This document shows, piece after piece, positions 40,506 to 55,639 of a stretch of 64,000 nucleotides of DNA. Made by a program: the position numbers and the translations under genes. How positions within the stretch are numbered: the stretch's first letter is position 1; each line of letters starts with the position of its first letter. The notes beneath the pieces were generated by a model. It had not been told where the DNA came from, did not search any database, and was given only the letters and a program-made list of their open reading frames with translations. The DNA comes from Polynucleobacter sp. AP-Reno-20A-A9 (GTDB lineage: Bacteria; Pseudomonadota; Gammaproteobacteria; Burkholderiales; Burkholderiaceae), in the NCBI RefSeq assembly GCF_018882085.1, contig NZ_JACVPB010000004.1:62001-126000 (forward strand), given 5' to 3'.

Positions 40506-40850
40506 CTATATTTTTGAGCTAGCTACTGAAATTTGCTGTTGGGCTCGTTTAATCTTTTGTCGATTACGCTCAAGCTTTAATGCTTTGCTGGCAGCGTCCT
40601 TCTGATTTTGTAAGCTAGCCACCCTAGCCTGCTCTGGAGTTTGTGGGGGCTTAGCCTTAATAGCAGAGATAACCTCATCAATCATTTGATACCCCCTGCT
40701 TTCATGGGTAACAACTGATGGGCTGCTAGCTAGGCTATCCATTCCGAATTGGTATTGCAGGATTAATCTGGCATGGATGGGGTTATCAGCAAAGACAGCA
40801 GTATTAACTAACTGACCCTTAATCCTGACATAGGCTTGATATTTGCTCAT
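40506..40850 (-). CDS. Hypothetical island protein
   Basis: A 114-residue protein. The N-terminal half is a small alpha/beta segment (KYQAYVRIKGQLVNTAVFAD, ARLILQYQFGM) and the C-terminal half is a long basic coiled-coil-like helix (about 70-112, rich in Lys, Arg and Gln). The family is not recognised. The gene follows the 146-residue gene on the same strand by 55 nt, suggesting one transcript. Such small basic proteins are frequent as accessory genes of integrative elements. Confidence 0.55.
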   Translation of the reverse strand: MSKYQAYVRIKGQLVNTAVFADNPIHARLILQYQFGMDSLASSPSVVTHESRGYQMIDEVISAIKAKPPQTPEQARVASLQNQKDAASKALKLERNRQKIKRAQQQISVASSKI

Positions 40851-40905
40851 ACAAGTATTTAGCTGGCTAGGGATGGTGCCGCGCTAAGCACGACATCCAC
40901 CCAGC

Positions 40906-41346
40906 TTACTTGCGAAATCCTGCTTTTAATGAGCCACTAGCATTTTCAATCTGGGCATCTAAATCCCCTGCTTCTACAGCAATCTTCACCGTCTCTAGAG
41001 CTTTAACCAAGTCATCACCACTATCGACTTGAATACTGGGCTTGCCTTTGGCTAGCTCAATAATCCAGCTGCCATATCTAATGGAAACGCAGACTTTGCC
41101 CTCCTCTGTTTGAAACCACCACGGCTTAATACGTTTTGGAACTTCTACTTGCTTACGAACCCCCGTCTCCTTATCTTTAATACTGCGAAACTTCATTAGT
41201 ACAAAAGGCGTTCCTGACATCTGCCCTTTAGCCAACTGGATCTGCTCCCATAATCGACTCGAAAGCTTGTTCCTCCGAATCACAATTGCTGGTTGATGAA
41301 CCGGCTTCTTGAGAGCCACTAGTTTTAATGCGGTCAATGCGCTCAT
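40906..41346 (-). CDS. Hypothetical protein, possibly DUF6641 family
   Basis: A 146-residue basic protein. The start MSALTALKLVALKKP and the central KRIKPWWFQTEEGKVCVSIRYGSWIIELAKGKPSI resemble the DUF6641 family found on plasmids and integrative elements; this match is from memory and not certain. A very strong AGGAGG lies before the ATG. It is divergent from the 41718 gene across a repeat-containing control region. Confidence 0.55.
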   Translation of the reverse strand: MSALTALKLVALKKPVHQPAIVIRRNKLSSRLWEQIQLAKGQMSGTPFVLMKFRSIKDKETGVRKQVEVPKRIKPWWFQTEEGKVCVSIRYGSWIIELAKGKPSIQVDSGDDLVKALETVKIAVEAGDLDAQIENASGSLKAGFRK

Positions 41347-41717
41347 ATTTCCTCCTATAAATGAAAGAGCTATTTCAATTTATTTTCGGAATAATGAATT
41401 GGACAACCTCTTTTTTATTTTGACTAATTTTGAGCCAGAAATTAATGGGTTTTCTTAACAAGAGCTAAATACTTTTGCGAGTTGCTGTGTTTCAAAGTAC
41501 GGTCGCAAATGGATAAAGAAGTTACTGGTAGTGAGTTACTAGTTACTCGAGTGGCAAATGAGTAACTCTGGCTAGCAACACGACTTAGTGACTATCTCTT
41601 TGAGATCTGCAACTGAACTCAAAGCAACATCTTTTTGGATCTACTCCTCTAGCAACCAAGCTACGAAAGCAACAGCTCGCAACGAGAACTCAATCAATTT
41701 GAAAAAAGGAGAGCGAT
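41347..41717. promoter_or_regulatory. Divergent control region with GTTACT repeats
   Basis: 371 bp between divergent genes. GTTACT occurs at 41521-41526, 41535-41540 and 41542-41547. The arms AGTTACTC (41541-41548) and GAGTAACT (41560-41567) form an 8-bp inverted repeat with an 11-nt spacer. This resembles an operator or iteron cluster. A TTTTCTTAAC copy (41450 region) matches an arm of the palindrome at 42359-42386. No reading frame is seen. Confidence 0.5.
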
Positions 41718-42167
41718 ATGAGAGAAATTGCGGTTAGAGGATTTATGAATGAGAAATTTAATACCACCTTCGGTAAAGGCTTATTTAGAAGAGCGATGTT
41801 TAATGGCTCAGTAGAGCTAGGTAGCCCAAATCAAAAATACCTAGTTGATTACTTTGAATACAGTAACTGGGAAAATACTGCCAAAACAGATCAGCAGATG
41901 GCGACTGTTCGAAAACTTAGTGATGCTGGCATTGCAGGACAAGCTGGTGTTTTAATGTCTTGGATCCAACATTACGATCCACTCACTAAGACAAAGCAAG
42001 GTGTTGATGGATTTAGCATCTACTCCCCCGAAACTAGGGAGCTGCATGTAGAGATTGAGGATTTAGTAAACAACACCAAGGATTCCTGGACGCTAGATGT
42101 ACATTTATGTAAAAGCACCGGCGCCAATAAGCCAGTGTTTATAGCAACCAATGTGGATTTGAACTAA
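41718..42167 (+). CDS. Hypothetical island protein
   Basis: A 149-residue soluble protein, beta-rich in the second half (VDGFSIYSPETRELHVEIEDL, SWTLDVHLCKSTG). AGGAG lies at good spacing before the ATG. No family, signal peptide or membrane segment is seen. It sits between two regulatory-looking regions rich in inverted repeats and upstream of the short recombinase gene, so it may belong to the element's core rather than its cargo. Confidence 0.55.
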   Translation: MREIAVRGFMNEKFNTTFGKGLFRRAMFNGSVELGSPNQKYLVDYFEYSNWENTAKTDQQMATVRKLSDAGIAGQAGVLMSWIQHYDPLTKTKQGVDGFSIYSPETRELHVEIEDLVNNTKDSWTLDVHLCKSTGANKPVFIATNVDLN

Positions 42168-42511
42168 ATCACGCCATAAATCCATACAAGATTCACCTCA
42201 AATCAGCCCTATACGCAAAGATCTATCAGCCTCGCAATACTGAGTAGCTGGCATTACTAAAAACAGCGCATAGGGCTAATTTGAGCTACTAACAGTAATT
42301 CGTGGGATTTTCGCCACGATCACTACGCTATTTTGGATAAATACTAGTAATGAAAGGTGGTTAAGAAAATTGTACTTTTCTTAACCTGCCTTGTAAGTCA
42401 TTGATTCTTGGAAGATATTTTTTGATGGCCAAATAAACAAATTTCGGTCGACCTTTTAAGACTTAGAAAACATACTAAATACAGACTTTTTATTTATCTA
42501 AGGAGAATTAA
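42168..42511. promoter_or_regulatory. Structured region with nested inverted repeats upstream of the short recombinase
   Basis: 344 bp without a gene. (1) CTCAAAT-C-AGCCCTAT-A-CGC (42197-42216) pairs with GCG-C-ATAGGGCT-A-ATTTGAG (42266-42285), a 20-position inverted repeat around 49 nt. (2) TCGTGG (42300-42305) pairs with CCACGA (42314-42319). (3) GGTTAAGAAAA (42359-42369) and TTTTCTTAACC (42376-42386) form a perfect 11-bp inverted repeat around TTGTAC. These could be recombinase sites, operators or structured RNA. Confidence 0.6.
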
Positions 42512-43078
42512 ATGGCACAAGCAAAAACACTATCTCAAACAGAACTAGATCTAGTTCTTAATTACGTCAGCAGCAAAAAATATGCCTTGCGCGATAGAGC
42601 GTTAATACTTACAAGCTTTCTTGGTGGACTTCGCGTTGCCGAAATTGCCAGCTTGAAAATGGGCGATGTATTAAATCTCGATGGGACTATTAAAAATGAA
42701 ATCCGCCTATCGGCATCACAAACCAAGGGTAAGCACCCTAGGACTGTATTTGTCTCACAGCGTTTACAGACTGAATTGGCCAACTACTTAACAACAAGAT
42801 ACATAAAAGAAGCTGACATCCCCCTCTTTCATACAGATCATCGTTTGGGATTTAGTGCTAATGGCTTATGTGTGTGGTTCTATCAGCTTTATAAGAATGT
42901 TGGCATTAGCGGTGGCAGCAGCCATTCAGGAAGAAAATTCTTTATTACTACCCTCGCTAATAAAGGGATTGGTGTTCGAATCTTAGCCAGCCTTGCAGGT
43001 CATAGATCGATTGCAGTGACTCAGAGATATATCGATGTCAATGATGAGCAAAAGAGGAATGCTGTCGAGCTAATTTAA
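42512..43078 (+). CDS. Short tyrosine recombinase (FimB/XerC-like catalytic domain)
   Basis: A 188-residue site-specific recombinase. All catalytic positions are visible: Arg41 (LGGLRVAEI), a Lys at 72 or 74 (SQTKGKHPR), His138 and Arg141 (SHSGRKFF), His164 (LAGHRSI) and Tyr173 (TQRYIDV). The N-terminal core-binding domain of long integrases is missing, as in FimB/FimE-type invertases. AAGGAG precedes the ATG. It is distinct from the island's long integrase and may act on the inverted repeats just upstream. Confidence 0.85.
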   Translation: MAQAKTLSQTELDLVLNYVSSKKYALRDRALILTSFLGGLRVAEIASLKMGDVLNLDGTIKNEIRLSASQTKGKHPRTVFVSQRLQTELANYLTTRYIKEADIPLFHTDHRLGFSANGLCVWFYQLYKNVGISGGSSHSGRKFFITTLANKGIGVRILASLAGHRSIAVTQRYIDVNDEQKRNAVELI

Positions 43079-43083
43079 ATGGC

Positions 43084-43101
43084 AGTCGGGTAAAACCGAC
43101 T
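43084..43101 (+). repeat. Island hairpin repeat, copy 2
   Basis: AGTCGG and CCGACT around GTAAAA, followed by CTAACA. It fills the 23-nt gap between the convergent short recombinase gene and the 43102-43917 gene. Confidence 0.8.
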
Positions 43102-43917
43102 CTAACAGGCATGCCTAGTCAATTGCAATACTCGATCTTTTGCGCAGTCAAACTCGTGATTACCTAATGAAAATAATCGGCTAGCAAAATTTTCATCTTC
43201 AAAATTAAAGCGGGTTTGAAAGCTTTTACCTAATTCTTGTTGTGGGAATATACCAAGTGCAGCCTGCTCTGAGATATTTAAAGCGCTTTCCTTGTGCCTC
43301 ATGACCATTAAGGTCATATGGCGCCGCATATGATCATCCCCACTTTTGTGCCTTGCTGCCAATGGGTCTAACCTCCCGATAAAGCGATCTACTAGCATTG
43401 CCATTGCCCCAGCCCTCCAGAGCTCAGTATCGGGATTTAAAGCCATGGTGTAGATTAGGAGTAAATCTTTCCACATATTCTTTAATTTAGCGCCTTTAAG
43501 TACTTGACTATGAATTTGCTTGATTTGAGTATTTGGCCAAATTTGCGATAAAGCATTAACCAGTTGGGATATTGATGGGGGGTCTTGATCGCTACAAAGC
43601 TTTAGCAATACGTCGTCATCACAAACAAAAAACCTGTCTTTGCCTTTAATAATTTCAATTACTGGAGGAGACGAATCCATCAGCTGCTTCTTATGACCTT
43701 CAAACCAAGTCGTAAATGGACAATCTAAGACACAACCGTACTTGGAGTAACAATCTAAGATCTTACGATTATCAAGACTCATTTTCTTAGTTAATCGTTT
43801 TGGTCTCACATACTTGCTAGCGGCGGTATAGCTAGGACTTATACGTAAAAAGTTAAAGAAAAGCCTCGCCATCTCCTGATGACAGTCTTGCTGCTCCGCA
43901 CAAAGTTTTCCGCCCAT
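43102..43917 (-). CDS. Hypothetical island protein
   Basis: A 271-residue soluble, mostly helical protein with no recognised domain. Cysteines at CYSKYGCVLDCPFTTWF (about 56-72) could bind metal. The segment AGAMAMLVDRFIGRLDPLAARHKSGDD followed by MRRHMTLMVMRHKESAL is basic and helical. GGAG lies 8 nt before the ATG, which supports this start. It is convergent with the short recombinase gene and divergent from the 44055 gene. It looks like element-core rather than metabolic, but this is inference. Confidence 0.5.
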   Translation of the reverse strand: MGGKLCAEQQDCHQEMARLFFNFLRISPSYTAASKYVRPKRLTKKMSLDNRKILDCYSKYGCVLDCPFTTWFEGHKKQLMDSSPPVIEIIKGKDRFFVCDDDVLLKLCSDQDPPSISQLVNALSQIWPNTQIKQIHSQVLKGAKLKNMWKDLLLIYTMALNPDTELWRAGAMAMLVDRFIGRLDPLAARHKSGDDHMRRHMTLMVMRHKESALNISEQAALGIFPQQELGKSFQTRFNFEDENFASRLFSLGNHEFDCAKDRVLQLTRHAC

Positions 43918-44054
43918 GCGGATATCTCCAGCCTAAATTTACCTACTTTTTTTAATTCTAAATTTTGTATGTATTCACTACAGGGATGCTGAAGTGAAAT
44001 CAGATTGTGAATGGAATTCACCATCACATTTTTAACAATTTCAGGAGAAAATCC

Positions 44055-44879
44055 ATGAGTGAAACTACTGTAGTCGAATCAGGCGTTAGCGCCCCTAACG
44101 CTGAAAAAACGAATGCCAACCCTTTTGCAGTGGGAATTGGCAATTTATTAACAGGCAGCAATCCAGAAAAAGCCATTGGCGACTCTATTGATCGCCTAGC
44201 TGAATATCGCAAAAACTGGGAAAGTAATGAGCTTTCTAGTGCAAATGATGTCTTGTATGGAATATTGCAGCATTGTTACGCCTTAAACAACACAATGCAA
44301 GGCTCAGACAGTATTGCCAAAAGCCTTAAAAAAGGTCTAGCGAACTACATCAAGACCCATGAATACAAGTTCAGCGACAGCTCGCCACTAATCACTAAGA
44401 TCGTGAAATGTGTATTTGGTGTTGATCGTCGTAGGGTTAATGCCTATAGCACAGCTATGAAGGCAGCAATGGCTGAGAGAGTGAGCGTACTTGATCTACC
44501 AAAATATTTCCGTGAAAAAGGTGGCGTTGAGGAAGTTAGACGCTCTGCTAATAGCAAAGGCAAATCGATTGCTCAGAAGGTGGAATTAGGGCGTACCGTA
44601 CTCGATGGCGAAATACTAGCGAAGGTACAAAGTGATTCTCTTAATGCGTCATTTTCAAATGAGCAGCTAGAGGAAGGCGTTGTATTGCTAGCAACACGAG
44701 AAGATGACGGCAGTTTTGCAATCCGCAGAGTCATCCAAAGTGGAACAGCAGTTAAATCAGCGTTAGCAGCTTGCTCCAGTGTTGGCGCTGAAAAAGAAAA
44801 AGCACAGAAACTATCTGATGAGGCTAAAGCAATTGAAGATGAGCGTTTAGCAGCCCAAGCAAAACTCAAAGCCGCTTGA
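44055..44879 (+). CDS. Hypothetical island protein, possible partner of the AAA ATPase
   Basis: A 274-residue protein, largely helical, with an N-terminal low-complexity stretch and a C-terminal coiled coil rich in Ala, Lys and Glu (about 245-274). The ATG at 44055 is chosen for its AGGAG 7 nt upstream; a longer reading to 44007 lacks one. The gene is followed 82 nt later by the ATPase gene, also with a strong binding site, so the pair is probably one operon. No family is recognised. Confidence 0.55.
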   Translation: MSETTVVESGVSAPNAEKTNANPFAVGIGNLLTGSNPEKAIGDSIDRLAEYRKNWESNELSSANDVLYGILQHCYALNNTMQGSDSIAKSLKKGLANYIKTHEYKFSDSSPLITKIVKCVFGVDRRRVNAYSTAMKAAMAERVSVLDLPKYFREKGGVEEVRRSANSKGKSIAQKVELGRTVLDGEILAKVQSDSLNASFSNEQLEEGVVLLATREDDGSFAIRRVIQSGTAVKSALAACSSVGAEKEKAQKLSDEAKAIEDERLAAQAKLKAA

Positions 44880-44961
44880 ACTTGTTGTTTGCTATCTGAT
44901 TGCTGGTATTTACTCCCTAAGATAAATCCAGCAATCATTTCATTATTTTAAGGAGATTGCG

Positions 44962-45711
44962 ATGCATAACCCTAGACCACCCTCTATTGTCATACAAGCA
45001 CCCGGATGTTTAGATGATTTTGCTTTACAACCTAATAGTCGATTTAAGCTTGAATCCATACTTGATTTAAGTCTGCCTATTCCAGCTAACGGTATTTGTG
45101 GGATTGTTCTATATGGTTTATACGGAACTGGTAAAACTACTCTGGCCAACTTATTGCCAGGCTTAATTGAAACGGCCAAAGTCAATCCTGCTTGTGCAGC
45201 AATGAATGCTGGATCTATCGTTGATACAGAAGATCCTAATTCAGATTATTTTGCCTGCGCACAAGGTCAGAATGGCGCTCAATTAACTCAATCGATTCAA
45301 AATAGAACCACTTATATGTCATTTAATAGTAGTGGTCTGCATTACATCATCATGGATGAGGTTGATGTCTTAACCCCAGCAGCGCAAGCAGGCTTCAAAT
45401 CAATCATGAATCGTAAAGACGTCATATTCATCATGACTAGCAATAACTTAGATCAAATTGATAAAGGCATTCAGAATCGATCAATTTTGATTGATATGAA
45501 TGTTCCACCAATTAATGATTGGCGACCAATTTTGCGTCGTGTTTATGAAAATGCAGGTCTACTAGCACCGCCTGATGATGTATTAGATCAAGTGGTTCAG
45601 GCTGGTAGAGGATCAGCTCGAAGCATTTTTTCAGATATCGTGATGAGCGTTAACCAAGAGGTGAGAGAAAAGCATGAGACTCACTTAATTACCCTTAAAG
45701 CATGCAGTTAA
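44962..45711 (+). CDS. AAA+ ATPase, clamp-loader-like
   Basis: A 249-residue AAA+ protein. It has Walker A GLYGTGKTT (52-60), Walker B YIIMDEVD (128-135), a sensor 1 MTSNN (158-162), and QNRS (171-174) at the arginine-finger position. A short helical lid follows. The arrangement is closest to clamp-loader / RFC-small-subunit type ATPases, but it is shorter and lacks the collar domain. A role in element replication or stability is plausible. AAGGAG precedes the ATG. Confidence 0.75.
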   Translation: MHNPRPPSIVIQAPGCLDDFALQPNSRFKLESILDLSLPIPANGICGIVLYGLYGTGKTTLANLLPGLIETAKVNPACAAMNAGSIVDTEDPNSDYFACAQGQNGAQLTQSIQNRTTYMSFNSSGLHYIIMDEVDVLTPAAQAGFKSIMNRKDVIFIMTSNNLDQIDKGIQNRSILIDMNVPPINDWRPILRRVYENAGLLAPPDDVLDQVVQAGRGSARSIFSDIVMSVNQEVREKHETHLITLKACS

Positions 45712-45716
45712 GTGAT

Positions 45717-45746
45717 ATGTAGCGTCGGGTAAAACCGACACTACAT
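45717..45746 (+). repeat. Island hairpin repeat, copy 3
   Basis: ATGTAG-C-GTCGG and CCGAC-A-CTACAT around GTAAAA form a 30-nt palindrome between the convergent ATPase and integrase genes. Its right arm includes the integrase stop codon. Confidence 0.85.
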
Positions 45747-46961
45747 GATTGCCCCTGCCAATCTTTCCGCACTCATCATTGGTGTTAATTTTGAATAATG
45801 ACGTTCAATCATCCCTACGCTAGTACCCATTTGTTTTGCCAATGTGTGAATATCAATACCATCTGCCAATCTAAATGTAGCGTAGGTATGTCGCAGGCTA
45901 TACAAGGTTCTATTCTTACCAGTAGCATCCTTTAATAAATTAGATTCAAGCATTAGCCGCTCAAATACACTATCTAGACTATGCGGAGCATCCCCTTCGG
46001 GAAATACAAATACTTTCTTATCCAATTTGGCCTCAATCACCGCCTCTAGGTTCTTATAAGGCAATGCCTGCCAAGCAATTAAACGCTCTAAAGCCTCGAT
46101 CACAAAATGTCTTGCTATTAGGTATCTAGGGCCCGTTTTGCCTGATACCCAAATTCTTAGGTAACGCTGCTCCCCAATCCAATGCCACTGCAGGGCCTTC
46201 CAGCGAATTGGCATGCTCTCCGTTCCTTGTCTAATGCCTGTTCCTAACAAGAACTCCACATAGACCCTGCACAGCCTTCTCATGTGATTACTACGTTGAT
46301 TGCGGCCAAAACGCTCCCAGTCCCGCATGTATTCCAGCAAGTAATTGATCTCTTGGTGGCTAAAGGCTGGCCTGATCTCTGCCCTATCGGCAGCAACCTC
46401 CAACAATGGAATGGTTCGATGTCGGTGAATTAATCCCTGATCCCTGGCTCGCTCTATTACACGCTTATATAGACCAGAATGGCGCCTTTGTGTGTAAGTT
46501 TTAGGATTCTTACCCATCTTGGAGATTCGCCAAGCCACATAGTCATCCACTAACTCTTGGGTAATGTCATTGATTTGGAAATTACCAAAGAATGGGATTA
46601 AGTACTTGGTATAGATATGAATGTAGTCAACATGGGTACGCTTATTGGGATTGGCTTGGACTACTCGGGCAGCCATAGCCAGCTCTTGATTGGCTAATTG
46701 ACGAAAGGTCTTGGACTTAATGGCTAGATCACTGGCTAGCTTGACCTTAACGGTTTCATATATGGCAATTGCTTGGGTGGTGGCTTCAGCTACTTGATCA
46801 GATCCAGTGCTGGCCGAATGCCAAGAGCCAGTAGATAACTTAAAACGGCATTGCCATTGGTGGCTATTGTGTCTTTTATAGAGGGTGACGGCGCCATCAA
46901 GGAGTTTGATAGGCTCATCGTCAGTGATAACAGTGGAAAATAATAGCGATAAATTATTCAT
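45741..46961 (-). CDS. Tyrosine site-specific integrase
   Basis: A 406-residue phage-type integrase, the likely enzyme that inserted the island at tRNA-Arg. It has an N-terminal arm-type region, a SAM-like core-binding domain (about 85-185) and a catalytic domain with Arg (GTGIRQGTE), Lys (SGKTGPRY), Arg (LYSLRHTYATF) and the Tyr nucleophile (MIERHYSKL). The ATG at 46961 is preferred. The longer reading to 46991 uses TTG and would place a perfect palindrome inside the coding sequence. Unlike most integrases it is not adjacent to the att site but lies mid-island. Confidence 0.9.
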   Translation of the reverse strand: MNNLSLLFSTVITDDEPIKLLDGAVTLYKRHNSHQWQCRFKLSTGSWHSASTGSDQVAEATTQAIAIYETVKVKLASDLAIKSKTFRQLANQELAMAARVVQANPNKRTHVDYIHIYTKYLIPFFGNFQINDITQELVDDYVAWRISKMGKNPKTYTQRRHSGLYKRVIERARDQGLIHRHRTIPLLEVAADRAEIRPAFSHQEINYLLEYMRDWERFGRNQRSNHMRRLCRVYVEFLLGTGIRQGTESMPIRWKALQWHWIGEQRYLRIWVSGKTGPRYLIARHFVIEALERLIAWQALPYKNLEAVIEAKLDKKVFVFPEGDAPHSLDSVFERLMLESNLLKDATGKNRTLYSLRHTYATFRLADGIDIHTLAKQMGTSVGMIERHYSKLTPMMSAERLAGAIM

Positions 46962-46963
46962 AA

Positions 46964-46988
46964 CAAGTGTCTCGTTACGCGACACTTG
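46964..46988. promoter_or_regulatory. Palindromic operator-like site at the integrase start
   Basis: CAAGTGTC and GACACTTG form a perfect 8-bp inverted repeat around TCGTTACGC, two bases before the integrase ATG. The position suggests autoregulation, excisionase binding or an mRNA hairpin over the start. Confidence 0.5.
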
Positions 46989-47033
46989 CAAGCTTAATTT
47001 CAGATTTAGGTTTGGACGACCTGAATTATTTAC

Positions 47034-47055
47034 TGTCGGTTAAACCGACACTACA
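47034..47055 (+). repeat. Island hairpin repeat, copy 4
   Basis: TGTCGGTT-A-AACCGACA is a perfect 17-nt palindrome followed by CTACA, the same right flank as copies 1 and 3. It lies between the integrase start and the autotransporter 3' end. Confidence 0.82.
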
Positions 47056-47154
47056 GCATCAGGGCCGCGATGGGCTGTTGCTAATCACAAAGCAGCCATC
47101 ACACTACTTATTGACGACAGGCTCAAAACGACCCACAATTGCCGTTCGGGGCAA

Positions 47155-47177
47155 CAAAAAACCTGCCGCAGCAGGTT
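47155..47177 (-). terminator. Terminator of the autotransporter gene
   Basis: The stem AACCTGC (47160-47166) pairs with GCAGGTT (47171-47177) around CGCA. On the minus strand it is followed by TTTTTTGTTG, 26 nt past the stop. Confidence 0.85.
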
Positions 47178-47202
47178 CTTGTTTAAGTCTAAATGAACTT
47201 CC

Positions 47203-50200
47203 TTATAAGCCAATCGTATAAGTCGCCATCACCGTAGTTGTCGATACTGCTTGGAATGGCTCTTGGCGATAGATGCCATTGATACCTACACGTTGGTTCT
47301 TCTCTACATCGTAATAAGCCCCAATAGTAGCGGTAGGTCTGGTTTTAACGGGATTAGCATTAAAGTTGATTGGAGTTAATCCAGTTACTCCAGTAGCAGA
47401 GTAAGTACCATTAGCAGTATTGGTATCAGTCTCGACACCAGCACTAGCGTATACCGTTGCTTTAGGAATAAAGCGGTATGAAGCACCTAGTCCTGCTAAT
47501 GCGGTAGTGGCATTGGTATTGAGTGCTGAGTAAGTCAGGGGCGCGGTCACTGTTGAAGATGCACCTTCGGTGTAGCCACCCATGTTGTTTTGGGTATAAC
47601 GCATGCCAACATACGGGCTAACAATTACCTCTGGCAGGACTGCAAAACCATACTTGGCTTGTATCTGAGCACCTTGGCTTATCAAATTAGACGAGCCAGT
47701 ACCAGGATCTGATGTTCCAACCACAGAACGGGTCACAGTTGTATTCTTTTGCCCATAAGCAGCAGAGACCTTCACCTCTGTACCGGTACCATCCAAGCGC
47801 TCATTCCAAGCGCTAAAGAGGCCGATCAACGGGGAGTTATTCCCTAATTTGACTGTGCCACCAGGGCTATTGGTAGAAAGGTTTTGATCTGCGTACGCAC
47901 CAATTCGGTAATTAGCATGGGGGCGATACGCTGCAATTAATAAGCCGCTCGTATTGTTAATTCCTTCTGATTGCACAGCGGTATTGCGTCCACCAACAGA
48001 AACGCACACATCATTAGCGCCAAAGACATTACAGTCATAAGCAAAGCTATTGGCTAATACGGAGTTTTGTAGTGTGTAGATGCCTTGCAAAACAGCAGCG
48101 GTATTGACTAAGGATTGTTGCGTATCGACTGTACCGGCACTCAAGGTGAGGTAGGCATTATTAAGGTCATATGATAGCGCTGAGTTCAAAGTGCTATAGC
48201 TGGCCAGATTGCCAGTGAGGCCAGAGAACTTGCCAGTCAATCCAGATGAAGTCAGAACCGTGTAGGTCCTCTTGGTATAAGTGCCACTAGTGGCATCAAT
48301 CACAAAACCACCAGCAAGACTTGCTGTTCCTGCAACCGCTAAAACGCTATTCGCTGTTGGCGTAATAGAGGTGGATAAAGTACCACCCGCTGTTTGCACA
48401 TAGTTACCAGCAACGCTCAAGGTTCCAATAGAGCCGCCAGGAGCTACTCTGCCGCTATTAGTTACGTTTCCACCAACACCGCCGTGACCAGCTAAAGTAC
48501 CTGCAGCTTGCACCGTTACATCGCCCGCTAACCGTGCTGTATTGTTTGCTTCTGAAGAGCCAACACTTAAAGTGCCGCCTGCTACTGTGGTGCCACCGGT
48601 ATATGTATTAACGCCATTCATATACGTAGTGCCAGTACCGTTGAAAGTCATTGCACCAGGGCCCGAGAACACACCAGATAAAGTGGCTGAGCCACCAGAT
48701 GGTGAGGTAATTGTGCCGCCACTAGAATTGACTGCAAAAGCTTGGTTAGAGTTATCGCCATTGAGCAAAGTTAAAGTTCCGCCTGCAAAGACGGGATTTA
48801 ATGTATTGCCTACATCGCTCAAATAATTTCCAGAATTAGTAACGATGTTACTAGAGGCAACATATGAGGGGAATAGCAAATCCCACATATTGGTAGTCCC
48901 AGCAGTTCCAGCCTCTAGCACTAAATTATAGAGATACCCGCCATAGGTCCCTGTAAAACTCGACGATGTAAGCAAGCCTGCATCCACCCCAGAAATTACA
49001 TTCAAGTAGCTTGATGACTTAACCAGTCCACTATAAATTCCGAAGTTAGTTGTACCAGTACCGCCATCCCAATTAGTTACGGAGGAAGCAGCTAACTTGC
49101 CGTAAGTATTGGCGTTAGTCCCAAGAATAATGTTGTAGTTTTTAGGGAGGCTACCAGAGAAAGTGAGGTCTGACTGTGCATTTGAGAGCGTAAAGGATGT
49201 GAGTGAAGATGAATTATTAACAATATTTGCAGCTGGCCGTGCACGTGTAGAGGCGCCAGAGGAAATAATGCCTTGATTGATAATATTGATCGATCCACCT
49301 GCACCAGATCCAATATTGATTCCCGCTCCACCAGAGTAACCGGCCCCACCAGTGATGCTGCCTCTATTAGTAATGGTTGTTGTTCCATTTCCGTCTATGG
49401 CAACTCCAGCACCACTTCCGCCCTGAAAGTATGCCCCACCACCAGCGCCACCAGTAATGGAGCCTCCGCTATTGTTGTTTATGGTCGTACTTCCTGATCC
49501 TGCAACAGATACACCAGCGCCCGCAGTTCCGCCAACTCCTCCACCAGAAAATGCATTGTGTCCAGCACCACCAGCGCCGCCAGTAATTAAGCCACTATTG
49601 GCTATGGATGTGGTTCCCGATCCAGAAATACCAATACCAACACCGCCGGCTGCACCCCAGCTACGTAGATAAAGATCTTGGTATCCAGCACCACCTGCAC
49701 CACCAGTAATCGAGCCAGCATTGGAGATGACTGCACCCGCTCCAGAAATAGATATGCTAGCCGCACCATAGCCAGCAGTTGTTATTTGAGAGGCAGAAGG
49801 ATTTCCAGTCACATTGCTGCTACCATTGCCGCCACCCCCACCGGTGATACCCCCGGAATTTATCAACGTAAAACTACTACCACTAAGGGCTACACCGCCA
49901 TTACCGCTGCCACTTCCACCCAAGGAAATGGCACCAGAGCCTCCTAAAATAGATCCGCCAGAATAATTTGTTAATGAGAAATTGGAGCCACTCAAACCAA
50001 TCCCACCATTACCGCCTAGGCTGCTAAAAGATGTTCCGCCTGTACCGCCAACAATTGAGCCAGAATTGCTAATAGCTGATGCGCTGCTGCCTGAAAGAAT
50101 GGATACGCCAATACCGCCTGCACCCCCCGTGCTACTTTGGTTATAACCTCCTGCACCACCATTAATGCTTCCATGATTGGAAATATTGTTTGAAGTGCCG

Positions 50201-51684
50201 CCAGTAACTGATAATCCAAACCCGCCGTCACCGCCGTTGTAACCACTCGCCCCAAGACCGCCTGCACCACCAGCAATGATGCCGCCTAAGTTATTGCTTA
50301 CCGTAATTGTTGCCCCGCTAATGCCCGCGCCACCCTGGGAACCGCCAAAGGCTCCGCTAGACCCATCAGCACCAACGCCGCCAGCAATATCTCCGCCTAA
50401 ATTATTTACCACCGTAAAGCTCGAGCCAAAAATACCAGCGCCACCGGTGGCATTATTTTGAGCAGCGCCACCGAACACGTTTCCGCTATTGGTAACTGTA
50501 AAGCTGCTTCCGTAAATACCTGCGCCAGCATGCGAGTTGGGAGCACCCCCGGTAATATTTCCACTATTGGTTAATGTAAAGTTATTTCCATTTACGCCTG
50601 CGCCCCCAAAAGTACCGTTGATATTTCCCGTTCCATAGTTTGTCAATGTGAAATTAGTGCCTGATACACCGGACCCACCAACTCCATAACCAGCACCAAG
50701 CCCACCAGTAATGCTTCCGCTATTTAATAGTGAAAAACCATTACCCCCAATTGCGTCTGCACCACGTATTGGCCCCAGCTGAGCTCCATAACTACCAGCG
50801 CCCCCGGTTATGACCCCACTCTGACTATTAATTAATGTGAAATTGCTGCCATAAACTCCGGCAGCACCAGCTACACCTGCGCCACCGGCGCCACCAGTAA
50901 TGCTTCCGCTATTTGTTAGAGTAAAACCGCTCCCATCTACACCAACACCGCCGGCTCCAGAGAGTCCTAACCTTATAATCCCACCATTACCTCCCGCTCC
51001 TCCAACGATGTTGTAGGCATTGATTAAGGTTGGGGTTCCAATAATTAAGAGCCCAACGCCACCTCCACCCCCTGCTCCAACTTGAGTTGCACCAGCCGCG
51101 TCAGGTGCGGAGGCGGAACCCCCGCTACCTCCTGTAATATTTCCTGAAATAACACTTCCAACAAAACCAGCACCGCCGCCGCCTCCACCGCCTTGAGCTG
51201 ACAACGAAGGTGAAAAACTGCCTATGCCACCATTGGCACCCAGACTATTTGCTCCACCAACACCCGCAGAACCACCAGCCCCTCCAGCACTATTTCCACC
51301 ATTGCCGGCTCCGCCAGCACCCCCAGAGCCATTACCCAAGCTACCACCTGCACCACCGCCACCGCCAGCAAAACCGTTGAAGTATCCCGCGTTGCCACCA
51401 CTACCCGCGCCCATAACCCCAGGTCCACCCACGCCTGGGTTGACACCAATTGCCGCTGTTCCATTTGCGGCCTGGGACATGACTGGAGGCGAGATAAATG
51501 CAAAACCAATTGCTAGGGCTAAGGGAATAGCCCTAATTGAGAATGGAATTGAAACTGCAACACTCTTCTTTTTGGAAGAAAATGATCTGCCAGCTGCTTT
51601 TTTACCTCTTGATCTAGCTAACTCTGAGACAACTTGCATCACTCCAAGTGATTTATTAAATATTAGGCGATACGTTTTATTCAT
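47203..51684 (-). CDS. Large glycine-rich autotransporter (type V secretion)
   Basis: A 1493-residue surface protein. It opens with an extended signal peptide region (MNKTYRLIFNKSLGVMQVVSE, then a hydrophobic core ending near AWDMTGG on the antisense side, that is VMSQA, about residue 72). Residues about 75-880 are Gly/Ser/Asn-rich repeats, many with the pattern TNSGSITGGAGG or GVSGSNFTLTN, which suggests a long beta-helix. An autotransporter-associated strand repeat (YTGGTTVAGGTLSVGS) follows. The last 270 residues or so are the beta-barrel, ending YTIGL. The passenger is probably exposed at the cell surface. It is cargo of the island, next to the sulfotransferase gene. Confidence 0.9.
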   Translation of the reverse strand: MNKTYRLIFNKSLGVMQVVSELARSRGKKAAGRSFSSKKKSVAVSIPFSIRAIPLALAIGFAFISPPVMSQAANGTAAIGVNPGVGGPGVMGAGSGGNAGYFNGFAGGGGGAGGSLGNGSGGAGGAGNGGNSAGGAGGSAGVGGANSLGANGGIGSFSPSLSAQGGGGGGGAGFVGSVISGNITGGSGGSASAPDAAGATQVGAGGGGGVGLLIIGTPTLINAYNIVGGAGGNGGIIRLGLSGAGGVGVDGSGFTLTNSGSITGGAGGAGVAGAAGVYGSNFTLINSQSGVITGGAGSYGAQLGPIRGADAIGGNGFSLLNSGSITGGLGAGYGVGGSGVSGTNFTLTNYGTGNINGTFGGAGVNGNNFTLTNSGNITGGAPNSHAGAGIYGSSFTVTNSGNVFGGAAQNNATGGAGIFGSSFTVVNNLGGDIAGGVGADGSSGAFGGSQGGAGISGATITVSNNLGGIIAGGAGGLGASGYNGGDGGFGLSVTGGTSNNISNHGSINGGAGGYNQSSTGGAGGIGVSILSGSSASAISNSGSIVGGTGGTSFSSLGGNGGIGLSGSNFSLTNYSGGSILGGSGAISLGGSGSGNGGVALSGSSFTLINSGGITGGGGGNGSSNVTGNPSASQITTAGYGAASISISGAGAVISNAGSITGGAGGAGYQDLYLRSWGAAGGVGIGISGSGTTSIANSGLITGGAGGAGHNAFSGGGVGGTAGAGVSVAGSGSTTINNNSGGSITGGAGGGAYFQGGSGAGVAIDGNGTTTITNRGSITGGAGYSGGAGINIGSGAGGSINIINQGIISSGASTRARPAANIVNNSSSLTSFTLSNAQSDLTFSGSLPKNYNIILGTNANTYGKLAASSVTNWDGGTGTTNFGIYSGLVKSSSYLNVISGVDAGLLTSSSFTGTYGGYLYNLVLEAGTAGTTNMWDLLFPSYVASSNIVTNSGNYLSDVGNTLNPVFAGGTLTLLNGDNSNQAFAVNSSGGTITSPSGGSATLSGVFSGPGAMTFNGTGTTYMNGVNTYTGGTTVAGGTLSVGSSEANNTARLAGDVTVQAAGTLAGHGGVGGNVTNSGRVAPGGSIGTLSVAGNYVQTAGGTLSTSITPTANSVLAVAGTASLAGGFVIDATSGTYTKRTYTVLTSSGLTGKFSGLTGNLASYSTLNSALSYDLNNAYLTLSAGTVDTQQSLVNTAAVLQGIYTLQNSVLANSFAYDCNVFGANDVCVSVGGRNTAVQSEGINNTSGLLIAAYRPHANYRIGAYADQNLSTNSPGGTVKLGNNSPLIGLFSAWNERLDGTGTEVKVSAAYGQKNTTVTRSVVGTSDPGTGSSNLISQGAQIQAKYGFAVLPEVIVSPYVGMRYTQNNMGGYTEGASSTVTAPLTYSALNTNATTALAGLGASYRFIPKATVYASAGVETDTNTANGTYSATGVTGLTPINFNANPVKTRPTATIGAYYDVEKNQRVGINGIYRQEPFQAVSTTTVMATYTIGL

Positions 51685-51712
51685 GGGAAGCTTTTAATGT
51701 GTTGAATGCTTT

Positions 51713-52534
51713 TTAGGCAATAGTGATGCCACTACGGCGAACTGTCTGATTTTTCCAAAAGGCATCATTTTCAAATCGCTTAAATAAATCAGGCGGCAAA
51801 ATACTAGTTCGCTCATTTTGAGCAACATTTCTTCTCACCTCATGCAATCCAGGTGTACCAGCCTTTTTATCAAACTCAGACGCATCAAATTCGACATTAT
51901 TGAAGTCATGTTTATATAGTGGCTGTCCAATAAAGTCATAAACAGCAGCCAATGTTTTTTGGGGATCTTTGACCAATGATTCATACTGAACCAACATTAA
52001 TCGGTTGGCTGCATAGTCTCCAAAGTAGGCCTCTTTCAGCGCGTTATACGCATAACCTACCATGCCATCTCCACCAGCGACTCCATCAGCGCGAGAGTAG
52101 ACAGTGCCACCACTTAGATAATTAAAAATAGATGAAGGCTGAAATACGTTACGCTGCACTAAGCGCTCTATGCTATCAATAATCCAAGGCATATTACGGA
52201 CACAAGCAATGACTTTGAATGCTGGATAAAGGGTATTGAGAAGTGGCATGCGAGCACACCAAGCGCGACTAGTATCGAAAATAACATCTGCTTTACTATC
52301 AGCGTAGTAACCCTCAATCACAGAACGGATAATTCGCTCACGCTGAACATCCTCAATAAAAACAGAGTACTCATTCTTGCCGCTCATGTTTTCTAAGAGA
52401 GCTCCAACCATGCCCGCTACCGGGCCACTCATATTGGCTTGAAACTGCGGATTTTGATTTAAAAGAGCAGCGAGCAGAGTGGAGCCGGAGCGAGGTAGCC
52501 CTGAGATAAAGTGAATTGTTTTATTGTTATGCAA
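51713..52534 (-). CDS. PAPS-dependent sulfotransferase family protein
   Basis: A 273-residue cytosolic sulfotransferase. The PAPS 5'-phosphosulfate loop is GLPRSGSTLLAALLN (12-26), and the 3'-phosphate-binding strand is VIACVRNMPWIIDSIERL (about 110-128). No ATG is in frame upstream of the P-loop. The start must be TTG at 52534, an unusual choice that may limit expression. The acceptor is unknown. It is divergent from cysC, which makes its sulfate donor, across an 86-bp gap, so the two form a sulfation unit. Confidence 0.85.
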   Translation of the reverse strand: MHNNKTIHFISGLPRSGSTLLAALLNQNPQFQANMSGPVAGMVGALLENMSGKNEYSVFIEDVQRERIIRSVIEGYYADSKADVIFDTSRAWCARMPLLNTLYPAFKVIACVRNMPWIIDSIERLVQRNVFQPSSIFNYLSGGTVYSRADGVAGGDGMVGYAYNALKEAYFGDYAANRLMLVQYESLVKDPQKTLAAVYDFIGQPLYKHDFNNVEFDASEFDKKAGTPGLHEVRRNVAQNERTSILPPDLFKRFENDAFWKNQTVRRSGITIA

Positions 52535-52620
52535 AGTATGCCCAATGTCGTATAAGCTTTAAGGGTAATAATACCAATAAAAAGTACCTCAATTCTCGAT
52601 TTTTAGGCGCATAAACCCAC

Positions 52621-53157
52621 ATGGCTGCAAATTTACTCAGTTCCAAGCCTACAGTCATTTGGCTGACTGGACTCTCAGGTGCCGGAAAATCCACTATTGC
52701 GAAAGGATTGGAACAAGCATTGCAATCTAAAAATATCCCAGTAAGTATTTTGGATGGCGATGTCCTTCGAGCTACTCTATGTAAAGACCTTGGCTTTAGT
52801 AAAGAAGATCGTATAGAAAACATGCGCCGTACAGCTGCGCTGGCCAAATCACTCTTAGACGAGGGAGACGTAGTGATTGTGGCATTGATTTCACCTTATG
52901 CTCAGGATCGACTAAAGGCGCGACAGCTTTTTCAGGAAAGGCAATTTTTAGAGGTTTTTATAAATACCCCTCTTGAGACTTGCATTCAAAGAGATCCTAA
53001 GGGGCTTTACGCCAAGGCGCTTAAAGGTGAGATTAAAAACTTTACAGGTATAGATGCGCCCTATGAAATACCCAGCAATCCAGAAATTGAATTATTTACA
53101 AAGAATAAGTCAGTCGAAGAATTGGTGAATGAAGTTTTAATATATAAAAGCCTTTAA
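52621..53157 (+). CDS. cysC: Adenylylsulfate (APS) kinase
   Basis: A 178-residue kinase that phosphorylates APS to PAPS, the donor for sulfotransferases. It has Walker A GLSGAGKST (17-25), LDGDVLR (44-50), SPYAQDR (91-97) and the lid RDPKGLYAKALKGEIKNFTG. The length is normal for the stand-alone enzyme. No CysD/CysN partner is nearby. In this context PAPS is probably used for sulfation rather than for assimilation. It begins a compact operon with the P450, ACP and 54471 genes. Confidence 0.93.
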   Translation: MAANLLSSKPTVIWLTGLSGAGKSTIAKGLEQALQSKNIPVSILDGDVLRATLCKDLGFSKEDRIENMRRTAALAKSLLDEGDVVIVALISPYAQDRLKARQLFQERQFLEVFINTPLETCIQRDPKGLYAKALKGEIKNFTGIDAPYEIPSNPEIELFTKNKSVEELVNEVLIYKSL

Positions 53158-53173
53158 ATTAATACACGAATAC

Positions 53174-54214
53174 ATGTCTTACTTACTGCGACTTAGACAA
53201 TTTATTAACCACCCTGAATCACTAGACATGAGTCAAGAGTGGGTAATGCTCGATAAGTCTACTCACCCTGCAATTTTGGTGTACGGCAAAGATCTATCCA
53301 TTGCATTACTCAAGTCAGATAAGGTCGCCCCAACCAATTTCATCGAGTACTATAAAAAATTACTTCAACTATCCAATCAAAACCTTCCAACAATTGACGC
53401 CATCTTTATGTGCTCGCCCGTGCTTCTTCATGGGGATGAACATTCACAGTCGAGAAAGACTTTTTCCAAAAAATATAAGCTAATTGAAGAAAATTTACAA
53501 AACTGGCTCCCAAGCTTTACGTCCGAGTTTTTTTCATTAGTCCCGGGTGATGAAGAAATTAATCCAATTAAATTGGTAGCGAACTATATTGCAGGAATTT
53601 TTCGTACTATTTTAGCCACAGACTTAGGCGTTAGTGTCAGCGAGATCCCATCTTTACCGCCAAAGCTTTTCTTTTTGACTCATCCGCTAGCCAAGGTTAT
53701 TGACGTTGAGGATAGATTAAGAGCGCTCAAAGAGTATCTAGAAAAAACTATGTTGCATCAAGGGAGAGATCTCTCTGAGGTTTGGATACTTTTAGCAATT
53801 ATCGTTGCAGGCTTTGAAGCACTTGAAGGAACGCTGATGTATGGGCTAACGAAGGAGCCAGCATCCCGCGGAACTTGGAAACAAAAAAGTCTGCTTAGAG
53901 AAGCGGCTGCTGTAAATTTTATAGGACGAAGAGCGCTGGAGAATTTCTCAATAGGCAATCTTACGATATCAAAGAACCAGGAGATCTATGTTTGTCCAAC
54001 CTTAGTACATAGATATATGGATGCAAAGAATCTAGCCAACATTAATAACTCCTTTTCTTTTGGAAAAGGCGCTCATACTTGCATTGGCCAAGTGATTTCA
54101 ACAGCAGTTATCAACTCTTTTTTTGCTGAATGGTCTTTATTTGTGGAGCGTCACCCAAAAATAGCCGCAGTAAAATACACCAGAGACTTTAACTTAACAT
54201 TTACCTTAAGATAA
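53174..54214 (+). CDS. Atypical short cytochrome P450
   Basis: A 346-residue P450-like protein, about 50 residues shorter than usual. The heme loop FGKGAHTCIG (296-305) supplies the thiolate Cys303. The I-helix AGFEALEGTL (212-221) and the C-helix HGDEHSQSRK (86-95, the DPPEHTRLR counterpart) are recognisable. The K-helix ExxR motif reads SLLR (239-242), with Ser in place of the near-invariant Glu, and the J-helix region before it is short. Either the chemistry is unusual or the protein is degenerate. The ACP gene starts 2 nt after the stop, suggesting an ACP-bound substrate. Confidence 0.8.
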   Translation: MSYLLRLRQFINHPESLDMSQEWVMLDKSTHPAILVYGKDLSIALLKSDKVAPTNFIEYYKKLLQLSNQNLPTIDAIFMCSPVLLHGDEHSQSRKTFSKKYKLIEENLQNWLPSFTSEFFSLVPGDEEINPIKLVANYIAGIFRTILATDLGVSVSEIPSLPPKLFFLTHPLAKVIDVEDRLRALKEYLEKTMLHQGRDLSEVWILLAIIVAGFEALEGTLMYGLTKEPASRGTWKQKSLLREAAAVNFIGRRALENFSIGNLTISKNQEIYVCPTLVHRYMDAKNLANINNSFSFGKGAHTCIGQVISTAVINSFFAEWSLFVERHPKIAAVKYTRDFNLTFTLR

Positions 54215-54216
54215 AA

Positions 54217-54459
54217 ATGTCATTAGAAGAAAGTATTGATCAAAATTTGCTTTTAAAAATTGTGGATCAAGCCCAAGTGATCAGCATTCCAGCTTGTGGT
54301 GCGCTTATGAAATCTATCTCAGAATTAGGAATTGACTCATTGCAATTAATTAGCCTATCTGTTGCACTTGAAGATTCATGTAAGTTAACTATAGATATAG
54401 ATCGCTTGACTGATAAATCCACACTAGGCGACTTACTGAATAATTTAAAACCCCTGTAA
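54217..54459 (+). CDS. Acyl carrier protein
   Basis: An 80-residue ACP-type protein. The phosphopantetheine attachment motif ELGIDSLQLISL puts the modified Ser at 41, in the usual helix-II position. It is a second, specialised ACP rather than the fatty-acid AcpP, judged by its divergent sequence and context. It is tightly coupled to the P450 gene (2-nt gap) and precedes the 54471 gene by 11 nt. It probably carries the substrate of these enzymes. No adenylation or ketosynthase gene is nearby to load it. Confidence 0.85.
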   Translation: MSLEESIDQNLLLKIVDQAQVISIPACGALMKSISELGIDSLQLISLSVALEDSCKLTIDIDRLTDKSTLGDLLNNLKPL

Positions 54460-54470
54460 TTTATCGCCCC

Positions 54471-55244
54471 ATGGATCCTTACCAAGGCTTTTCCTCCCTT
54501 ATTGCAATAATTGAGACTGCAGTAAGTAGCGCACTCTCAACTAACCCCACTCCCGCTAGAGGAGAGTTATTTTCGGCGACCTGGAAATTAGTTGGCAATA
54601 ATCTAGAGGCTCACCAACTTCTACCAAATGGCAATCTTTTTTGCGATACACAGTTAACGAAAAATGAGCTATTACTACTCCTAATTATCCAAATCATTAG
54701 GCGGCAAGGTTTTGATTCATATCCAATAATTCACCTTTCCAATAAAAAAATATTTGAAGAGCTTGGTCGGCTAAATGGTTCGGCCACTATTTGCGGCGTA
54801 CATACGGGCTTTGCATTTTTGCCTAGCATCATGGCTCAATTTAATCGAAAAATATCTATTATTTCTTCGGATGAATCAATCAGGGATACATTGACGCGTT
54901 CAGGCCCAAGCGGAAATATTGAGGTAATTCCGAGCGACTTATTTTCCTTTATACGCCTCAGGGATTCAATGACAAAGGGCAATTTATGCGTCTGCTCAGT
55001 TGATTACTCAGATGGAAAAAAGTTTAGGTACATAAGTCCAAGCTTATTTGAATTTTCCATTCAAAATGGGTTCTCAATTTATTTTTTTAAAAGCGAAGTA
55101 AATTCAGATGGATCAGTATCGGTAGATTTACTAAAATCTCAACATGATAAGGACCTATATAAATCTGCTGCAGAGTTCATTTATTACATCACCTTGAATC
55201 AAAATCCGAAGCGAGAGCTATCAATTAAACACATAACTGACTAA
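54471..55244 (+). CDS. Unrecognised protein, possibly acyltransferase-like
   Basis: A 257-residue protein without a signal peptide. The central part, TICGVHTGFAFLPSIMAQFNRKISIIS, then LCVCSVDYSDGKKF, loosely recalls the LpxL/HtrB lysophospholipid-acyltransferase fold, where H-x4-D/E is catalytic. His111 is present, but the acidic partner position is Phe116, so the match is weak. It is the last gene of the cysC-P450-ACP operon. Acting on an ACP-bound acyl group would fit, but this is inference. Confidence 0.5.
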   Translation: MDPYQGFSSLIAIIETAVSSALSTNPTPARGELFSATWKLVGNNLEAHQLLPNGNLFCDTQLTKNELLLLLIIQIIRRQGFDSYPIIHLSNKKIFEELGRLNGSATICGVHTGFAFLPSIMAQFNRKISIISSDESIRDTLTRSGPSGNIEVIPSDLFSFIRLRDSMTKGNLCVCSVDYSDGKKFRYISPSLFEFSIQNGFSIYFFKSEVNSDGSVSVDLLKSQHDKDLYKSAAEFIYYITLNQNPKRELSIKHITD

Positions 55245-55560
55245 CGGACTCCTAATGGCCGTTCTCTGCCACCCTATCTGCCCTATTTCGGATTTTTCAA
55301 TGTCCGCATAACACCTGATAAAAGCCGCCCGACCGTCGCGATAAGTGACACTCGATAGTCGGGTCGAACCGACACTAAATCGTTAGGGTCAAAATTCCAT
55401 CAAAATCACCCAGTCGCAGGGTCGCACATAGTCCTTAGGATCGCCTACGCTAGACTCAAGGCTACCCAAACGCCAGCAAAGCCCAAGGCATGACACCCCA
55501 CAATCAAGCCAATAGAACAGCCTGAAACAATCCTAGAACGGCATTAAACAAGAGAAAGAG
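55245..55560. other. Gene-free right end of the island
   Basis: About 316 bp between the last cargo gene and the right attachment repeat. It contains hairpin repeat copy 5 (55356-55376). No convincing gene or T-tract terminator was seen. Confidence 0.5.
55356..55376 (+). repeat. Island hairpin repeat, copy 5
   Basis: GTCGG and CCGAC (55358-55362 and 55369-55373) around GTCGAA, followed by ACTA. The orientation matches the other four copies. It lies about 185 bp inside the right attachment repeat. Confidence 0.75.

Positions 55561-55639
<79 letters not shown>

What the first reader, a model, noticed from the sequence alone, without database searches (positions are those of the whole stretch)
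51713..55244. Compact sulfotransferase-CysC-P450-ACP-unknown gene cluster
A PAPS maker (CysC) and a PAPS user (sulfotransferase) sit divergently. They are joined to an operon with very short gaps of 2-16 nt that encodes a P450, a dedicated ACP and an unrecognised protein. P450s acting on carrier-bound acyl chains are known in natural-product pathways. Here there is no ketosynthase or adenylation enzyme, so the cluster would have to take its acyl group from primary metabolism. A sulfated, oxidised lipid or a sulfated surface molecule is a reasonable guess. The combination is not one I recognise.
Basis: partly seen in the sequence, partly recalled or inferred. Interest (0 to 1): 0.8.

Follow-up and report, generated by a model that had tools for sequence, protein, structure and literature searches.

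The report
Sulfation cassette for giant surface proteins
A freshwater bacterium carries, on what looks like a mobile island, six neighbouring genes in which a sulfate-adding enzyme and an apparently dedicated maker of its sulfate donor sit beside the gene for a large exported surface protein, so the enzyme would likely sulfate that protein before export, a modification we did not find described for such proteins.

Summary
The genes are real, but the cluster was cut one gene short: 28 nt downstream of the sulfotransferase (SULT), same strand, lies a 1,493-aa glycine-rich autotransporter. Autotransporter, SULT, CysC, P450-like, ACP and X sit on a tRNA-Arg island; in a second strain a smaller island at another tRNA-Arg holds these six. 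Neighbourhoods favour protein sulfation over a lipid pathway. In 11 of 17 further genomes (9 of 12 genera) the SULT homologue directly adjoins a giant exported-type repeat protein on the same strand; control genes adjoin a gene of 900 aa or more in 14 of 156 cases, of 1,500 aa or more in 1 of 162. Six of 17 have no such neighbour. Elsewhere in the genus, stand-alone CysC pairs with TPR-sulfotransferases and giant ESPR proteins. The host CysH looks like an APS reductase, so PAPS seems dedicated to sulfation. P450-ACP-X is a separate, very rare module: a P450 without the ExxR glutamate, an ACP, and a protein modelled with the LpxM/PatA acyltransferase fold but lacking the HX4(D/E) acid; its product is unknown. 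Sulfation is untested and tyrosine as acceptor is inferred. It would work like RaxX-RaxST, with a large surface protein as substrate.

The parts
38910..55607 (.). genomic island bounded by an exact 47-bp direct repeat (38910-38956 and 55561-55607) at tRNA-Arg
   Evidence: repeat found by script; tRNA-Arg 55563-55639
45741..46991 (-). integrase (tyrosine recombinase type)
   Evidence: phrog_1 integrase 4.4e-27; Pfam Phage_integrase 1.8e-4, below cutoff
47203..51684 (-). glycine-rich ESPR autotransporter, 1,493 aa, proposed sulfation substrate
   Evidence: ESPR 2.6e-14; Autotransporter beta-domain 2.7e-13, PATR 4.5e-6; passenger 29.8% Gly, 2.6% Tyr
51713..52534 (-). sulfotransferase (SULT), protein-tyrosine-sulfotransferase-like
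   Evidence: Sulfotransfer_3 9.2e-17; family profile best matches protein-tyrosine sulfotransferase 1, 1.5e-14
52621..53157 (+). CysC, APS kinase, only one found in this genome
   Evidence: TIGR00455 5.1e-68; single match in the genome
53174..54214 (+). short divergent P450-like protein, heme-Cys loop kept, no ExxR Glu
   Evidence: Pfam p450 0.013 below cutoff; alignment; low-confidence model whose 50 listed hits are P450s
54217..54459 (+). acyl carrier protein, GIDSL motif
   Evidence: PP-binding 4.5e-8; sequence
54471..55244 (+). X: LPLAT-fold protein (LpxM/PatA-like), conserved His, no HX4(D/E) acid
55563..55639 (-). tRNA-Arg (UCU), insertion site
   Evidence: ARAGORN, Rfam

Best explanation
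The block is an island-borne surface-protein cassette in which the sulfotransferase, predicted to be fed with PAPS by the adjacent CysC, likely sulfates the neighbouring large autotransporter in the cytoplasm before export. Shown: gene order and strands, the island repeats, a second copy at another tRNA-Arg holding these six genes, the recurrent pairing of SULT with giant exported-type proteins, and protein-tyrosine sulfotransferases as best solved matches. Inferred: that the enzyme is active, that the autotransporter is the acceptor, that tyrosines of the glycine-rich passenger are sulfated, and that this precedes export. The P450-ACP-X operon rides along as a separate module: most likely the P450 oxidises an acyl chain on the ACP and X passes it on, but acceptor and product are unknown and both proteins lack textbook catalytic residues.
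For: SULT is 28 nt upstream of the autotransporter on the same strand. In 11 of 17 other genomes with the SULT at E<=1e-40 (9 of 12 genera) it directly adjoins a giant repeat protein, same strand in 11 of 11, SULT upstream in 10 of 11; controls 14 of 156 at 900 aa and 1 of 162 at 1,500 aa. DUF4347 in 9 of 16 neighbour sequences scanned and in the G1254 neighbour. Nostoc and Caballeronia plasmids have repeat protein-SULT-CysC in a row, the latter followed by genes that read as a type I secretion system. G429 has SULT beside a Gly/Tyr-rich ESPR protein. 5 of 8 stand-alone CysC loci of the genus lie within 10 kb of a sulfotransferase and an ESPR protein, three of them with an unrelated-looking TPR-sulfotransferase. 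Single CysC and an APS-reductase-looking CysH. Profile match to protein-tyrosine sulfotransferases. Six-gene island at another tRNA-Arg in Tro8-14-1.
Against: No sulfated product was seen; all is by sequence. 6 of 17 genomes (3 of 12 genera) and 4 of 6 plasmid records read have no giant neighbour. CysC is near the SULT in only 1 of these 17 loci (G743, about 2.6 kb away; L125 was read by eye). G429 has no CysC match. Some ESPR genes in the genus have no sulfotransferase in the stretch read. The passenger has 2.6% Tyr and 1.6% Asp+Glu, without the acidic surroundings I recall for animal sulfation sites. The two island copies are near-identical and may reflect one transfer. Pairing of P450-ACP-X with the rest rests on these two copies.
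Confidence: 0.6

Rival explanations
1. One metabolite pathway: the P450 hydroxylates an ACP-bound acyl chain from fatty-acid synthesis, SULT sulfates the new hydroxyl, and X transfers the product to a lipid or amine.
For: The SULT/CysC and P450-ACP-X genes are contiguous and travel together in two islands; X has an acyltransferase fold; the 50 listed model hits of the P450 include P450BioI bound to acyl-ACP.
Against: SULT homologues pair with giant proteins without the trio; the trio is found with no SULT or CysC seen nearby; SULT and autotransporter are the same-strand neighbours, the trio is divergent.
Confidence: 0.15
2. SULT sulfates a glycan carried by the autotransporter or by the cell surface, not a protein side chain.
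For: Sulfotransfer_3 proteins are diverse; NoeE, a sugar sulfotransferase model, is the one NCBIfam match (2.7e-7, far below its cutoff). In G050 ORFs between CysC and the ESPR gene read like glycosyltransferases (by eye), G303 has an FkbM methyltransferase, and 3 of 8 stand-alone CysC loci look like glycan loci.
Against: No glycosyltransferase family was found for the cassette proteins scanned; the SULT profile matches protein-tyrosine sulfotransferases best.
Confidence: 0.2
3. No functional link: SULT and adhesin genes are both common cargo of mobile islands and lie together by chance.
For: The window island and the G429 contig carry integrases; the SULT is in only 3 of 186 genus genomes.
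Against: Same-strand adjacency recurs in 9 of 12 genera against 1 of 162 control genes at 1,500 aa; a different sulfotransferase type shows a similar pairing.
Confidence: 0.08

Closest known systems
RaxX-RaxST-RaxAB of Xanthomonas (PMC6637879: passages, sections 8 and 12 read)
   Same: A tyrosylprotein-sulfotransferase-like enzyme encoded beside its exported substrate; PAPS donor; Arg and Ser of the two PAPS motifs at comparable positions (R15/S121 here, R11/S118 there).
   Different: RaxX is a 60-residue peptide exported by type I secretion; here the proposed substrate is a 1,493-aa autotransporter, CysC lies in the cassette while the paper says PAPS enzymes are core genes there.
Animal and plant protein-tyrosine sulfotransferases (PDB 9wp1, 5wrj, 3ap1, 8w5z)
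   Same: Best matches of the SULT family profile, 1.5e-14 to 4.9e-9.
   Different: Those that I recall act in the Golgi; catalytic base not matched with certainty.
Glycosylated autotransporters such as TibA with TibC (PMC10450907: passages seen)
   Same: A dedicated enzyme modifies an autotransporter.
   Different: Sugar rather than sulfate; the passages seen and the term count show no mention of sulfate.
P450BioI-ACP, and LpxM/PatA acyltransferases
   Same: Fold-level matches of models; carrier-protein partnership.
   Different: P450 here lacks the ExxR Glu and X the HX4(D/E) acid; sequence families of 6 and 5 clusters among about 5.77 billion proteins.

Membership tests
Protein-tyrosine sulfotransferase (TPST/RaxST type) | PAPS-binding motifs with essential Arg and Ser | tested here: met
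   R15 and S121 invariant in 19 of 19 rows; roles after section 12 of PMC6637879
Protein-tyrosine sulfotransferase (TPST/RaxST type) | Sequence relationship to known protein-tyrosine sulfotransferases | tested here: met
   Profile against PDB: protein-tyrosine sulfotransferases are the best 7 of 10 matches, 1.5e-14 to 4.9e-9; single sequence 6.5e-5
Protein-tyrosine sulfotransferase (TPST/RaxST type) | Catalytic base His or Glu between the two motifs | tested here: inconclusive
   E54 in 16 of 17 closer rows, Asp in the other; D87 in 19 of 19; neither tied to a known base
Protein-tyrosine sulfotransferase (TPST/RaxST type) | About 40% identity to RaxST | not tested
   No RaxST sequence was obtained with the tools
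Protein-tyrosine sulfotransferase (TPST/RaxST type) | Sulfates tyrosine of an exported protein | not testable with these tools
   Needs biochemistry
Type Va autotransporter | Extended signal peptide and C-terminal beta-domain | tested here: met
   PF13018 2.6e-14; PF03797 2.7e-13 on the last 499 residues; the whole-protein scan had not shown the beta-domain
Cytochrome P450 | Heme-Cys loop FxxGxHxCxG | tested here: met
   FGKGAHTCIG in the window; F296, G297, G299, H301, C303, G305 invariant in 7 of 7 rows
Cytochrome P450 | ExxR of helix K and the I-helix Thr (motifs recalled) | tested here: not met
   By eye: Glu of ExxR in 1 of 7 rows (P0005), absent in the window; no I-helix Thr seen. Filed only as P450-like
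LPLAT / LpxL-type acyltransferase | Fold | tested here: met
LPLAT / LpxL-type acyltransferase | HX4(D/E) catalytic motif (recalled; the E127A entry of LpxM is) | tested here: not met
   His kept in 6 of 6 rows; the +5 residue is Phe, Tyr or Pro, never acidic. Filed as LPLAT-fold only
Acyl carrier protein | PP-binding domain with the DSL serine | tested here: met
   PF00550 4.5e-8; GIDSL in the sequence
tRNA-integrated genomic island | Direct repeat of the tRNA 3' end plus integrase | tested here: met
   47-bp exact repeat; integrase

The most novel reading that the evidence does not exclude
The six genes build one doubly modified surface fibre: the P450 oxidises an acyl chain on the dedicated ACP, X transfers it to the autotransporter passenger, and SULT with CysC sulfates the same protein, giving a sulfated and acylated adhesin; and, more broadly, an unrecognised bacterial sulfation system acts on giant exported proteins in several phyla and through several export routes.
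Probability: 0.15. Interest if true: 0.9.

Novelty: new variant of a known kind. Interest (0 to 1): 0.7.

Why it matters
PMC6637879 describes RaxX as a sulfated bacterial protein and leaves the substrates of the many raxST-like genes open. If giant exported proteins are such substrates, protein sulfation becomes a general way for bacteria to alter their surface, testable by mass spectrometry in harmless freshwater species. The P450-ACP-LPLAT trio adds a very rare enzyme set with missing textbook catalytic residues.

Tried and rejected
Scans of viral contigs for the P450 (A1) and X (A3) found no relative. X gave no Pfam, NCBIfam or PHROG match; its profile's best PDB sequence match (PCNA, 6.5e-4, made of three short stretches, none significant alone) was judged chance. 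The P450 model has low confidence (pLDDT 58.8), so its fold hits support the class only. A translation in the wrong frame was discarded; the right frame was used. The coordinates given for the L007 ACP were wrong; it lies at 11056-11298. The first gene caller missed the SULT in 8 of 22 loci and was replaced. The first adjacency test gave SULT 13, 10 and 9 of 22 loci at 800, 1,000 and 1,500 aa against 2, 1 and 0 of 25 control genes; its 13 include an ORF in L096 that a separate gene divides from the SULT, so G1015 is counted as a miss. One search uses more control genes; at 550 aa controls reach 58 of 119, so only very large partners are informative. Two distant SULT hits (G718, G524) were dropped from the 17; G718 lies beside a ShlB-type protein, G524 shows no giant. 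Considered and not kept: sulfated polysaccharide as main reading (no glycosyltransferase family found in the cassette); chance co-cargo (kept as a low rival). A direct comparison with RaxST was not possible. Searches (P450, ACP, LpxL in the literature; Polynucleobacter autotransporters) gave nothing relevant in their listings.
Full report
What is there. The window lies in a 2.18-Mb genome. Two of 186 genomes of its genus hold X at full length, this one and G336; G336 matches the contig of Polynucleobacter sp. Tro8-14-1 in length and position. Twenty-eight nucleotides downstream of the sulfotransferase (SULT), on the same strand, is a 1,493-aa protein with an extended signal peptide (ESPR, 2.6e-14), a glycine-rich passenger (29.8% Gly), a PATR repeat and an autotransporter beta-domain (2.7e-13).

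The unit sits on an island. An exact 47-bp direct repeat, one copy being part of tRNA-Arg(UCU), brackets 38910-55607; an integrase gene lies inside. In Tro8-14-1 the homology to the window runs from window 47129 to 55270, 98.1% and 93.6% identical in two pieces. There the block lies between tRNA-Arg(ACG) and a repeat of at least 49 bp of it, about 9 kb apart, and holds the autotransporter, SULT, CysC, P450-like, ACP and X genes and no other gene-like ORF that I saw. So these six genes have moved as a set, though the two copies are close and may reflect one transfer.

Who uses the PAPS. The genome search found one CysC. The genome has two PAPS_reduct-family genes, which read as CysH and CysD, with a CysN-like ORF next to them. 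The CysH has the two cysteine pairs that I recall as typical of APS reductases, so sulfate assimilation would not need PAPS, and CysC is a likely dedicated donor for the SULT. In the genus 12 of 186 genomes have a CysC match at 1e-40 or better (14 places), 6 places in frames of 643-673 aa as CysNC fusions would have, 8 stand-alone.

What the SULT goes with. Homologues at E<=1e-40 turned up in 17 further genomes of 12 genera, drawn from 379 genomes of the order (8), 249 of the phylum (8) and 293 of the class (1 new), with overlap between draws. The surroundings of all 17 were fetched. In 11 of 17 genomes (9 of 12 genera) the SULT directly adjoins a giant repeat protein of exported type (inferred from domains), on the same strand in 11 of 11; in 10 of 11 the SULT is the upstream gene, as in the window. 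Seven are complete, 2,033-2,660 aa; G480, G937 and G891 are cut by contig ends (950, 1,192 and 2,082 aa seen), and G1254 is broken by a run of N (566 and 1,125 aa seen). The six without such a neighbour are G742, G714, G656, G1015, G869 and G815. Of 16 sequences scanned (10 of these 11, plus window, G429, Nostoc, Caballeronia and two from the distant G718 locus), 9 carry DUF4347, 3 ESPR, 5 Big_12 and 4 Cadherin_4; the eleventh, G1254, has DUF4347. As control, 20 regions of 19.5 kb were taken from 11 of the 17 genomes and from G000 and G336: 14 of 156 genes adjoin a called gene of 900 aa or more, 1 of 162 one of 1,500 aa or more. By an automatic test at 1,500 aa the SULT gives 8 of the 16 survey loci then held. 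At a rate of 0.10 the chance of 11 of 17 is 7e-8 and of 9 of 12 is 1.7e-7; the genomes are not fully independent, and the 11 were judged by reading.

Closest relatives and other phyla. In the genus the SULT is in 3 of 186 genomes: the window's, Tro8-14-1's and G429's (71% identity). In G429 the 7.5-kb contig shows a divergent Gly/Tyr-rich ESPR protein, an integrase and a primase/AAA protein, and no P450, ACP or X; no CysC was matched in that genome, which is 78% complete. Of 16 plasmid records with a match I read 6. In Nostoc sp. UHCC 0302 a Gly-rich RTX-type protein, SULT and CysC are in a row. In Caballeronia pSBC2-1 an 856-aa repeat protein, SULT, CysC and ORFs that read as a type I secretion system are in a row (no annotation there). 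The four Acetobacter and Komagataeibacter records have no giant neighbour annotated. CysC near the SULT was found in 4 of 22 loci tested by BLAST (Tro8-14-1, Nostoc, Caballeronia, G743), so the donor gene usually lies elsewhere.

An independent line. Of the 8 stand-alone CysC loci in the genus, all read, 5 lie within 10 kb of both a sulfotransferase gene and an ESPR protein: the window and Tro8-14-1, and three with another enzyme, TPR-sulfotransferases of 1,764 aa (G303, two sulfotransferase stretches), 740 aa (G284) and 1,725 aa (G050, two stretches). The other three (a second G303 locus, G422, and a G362 copy with an internal stop) lie among genes that look glycan-related; at the edge of the G362 stretch one ORF reads like a sulfotransferase (by eye, not tested). 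ESPR matches occur in 4 of 31 genus genomes sampled, 6 places; of the four places other than the window's and G303's, I read three more widely and saw no sulfotransferase beside them.

The enzyme. The profile of 19 homologues matches protein-tyrosine sulfotransferases 1 and 2 best among solved structures (1.5e-14 and 9.4e-13). R15 and S121 are invariant and fit in role R11 and S118 of RaxST (section 12 of PMC6637879). The base is not settled: D87 is invariant in all 19 rows, E54 is kept in 16 of the 17 closer rows. Section 8 of that paper reports raxST homologues in Proteobacteria and Cyanobacteria, in diverse contexts and presumably acting on substrates other than RaxX. I could not obtain RaxST to test identity.

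Verdict. Best reading: an island-borne cassette for a likely sulfated autotransporter, with a separate acyl-ACP module aboard. Literature searches listed no paper on sulfated autotransporters or on sulfotransferases with DUF4347 proteins (listings; an open-access library only, long lists shown in part, so absence is weak evidence). In PMC10450907, a review of modified extracellular bacterial proteins, the terms for sulfate and sulfotransferase occur 0 times in the main text (passages only).

Noticed in passing
L089, L090, L101, L102, L103, L125 (and L092): Small phage Collar-domain-like proteins sit near SULT and its giant neighbour; Pfam confirmed the domain in the two that were scanned (L089, L101), the others were read by eye.
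   Followed up: partly
L133, L138, L139: TPR-sulfotransferases, two of them with two sulfotransferase stretches, lie beside CysC and giant ESPR proteins in other genomes of the genus.
   Followed up: partly
L041-L060: 20 IMG/VR contigs encode SULT relatives; the one that I read (L043) has it among phage structural-looking and glycosyltransferase-like genes.
   Followed up: no
window 42512-43078 and 44962-45711: The island carries a second integrase-family gene (1.3e-20) and a clamp-loader-like AAA protein.
   Followed up: no
L135 (G000 contig C3, near 9072): The window's genome has a second ESPR gene in a 5,597-aa frame, preceded by an ORF that looks like a two-partner secretion transporter (by eye).
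   Followed up: no
L061:12877-13113: The Nostoc plasmid also has an acyl carrier protein gene about 4 kb from SULT-CysC; possibly chance.
   Followed up: no
L037 (G411): An X homologue next to a 327-aa P450-like protein and a further ORF, on a 3.1-kb contig.
   Followed up: partly
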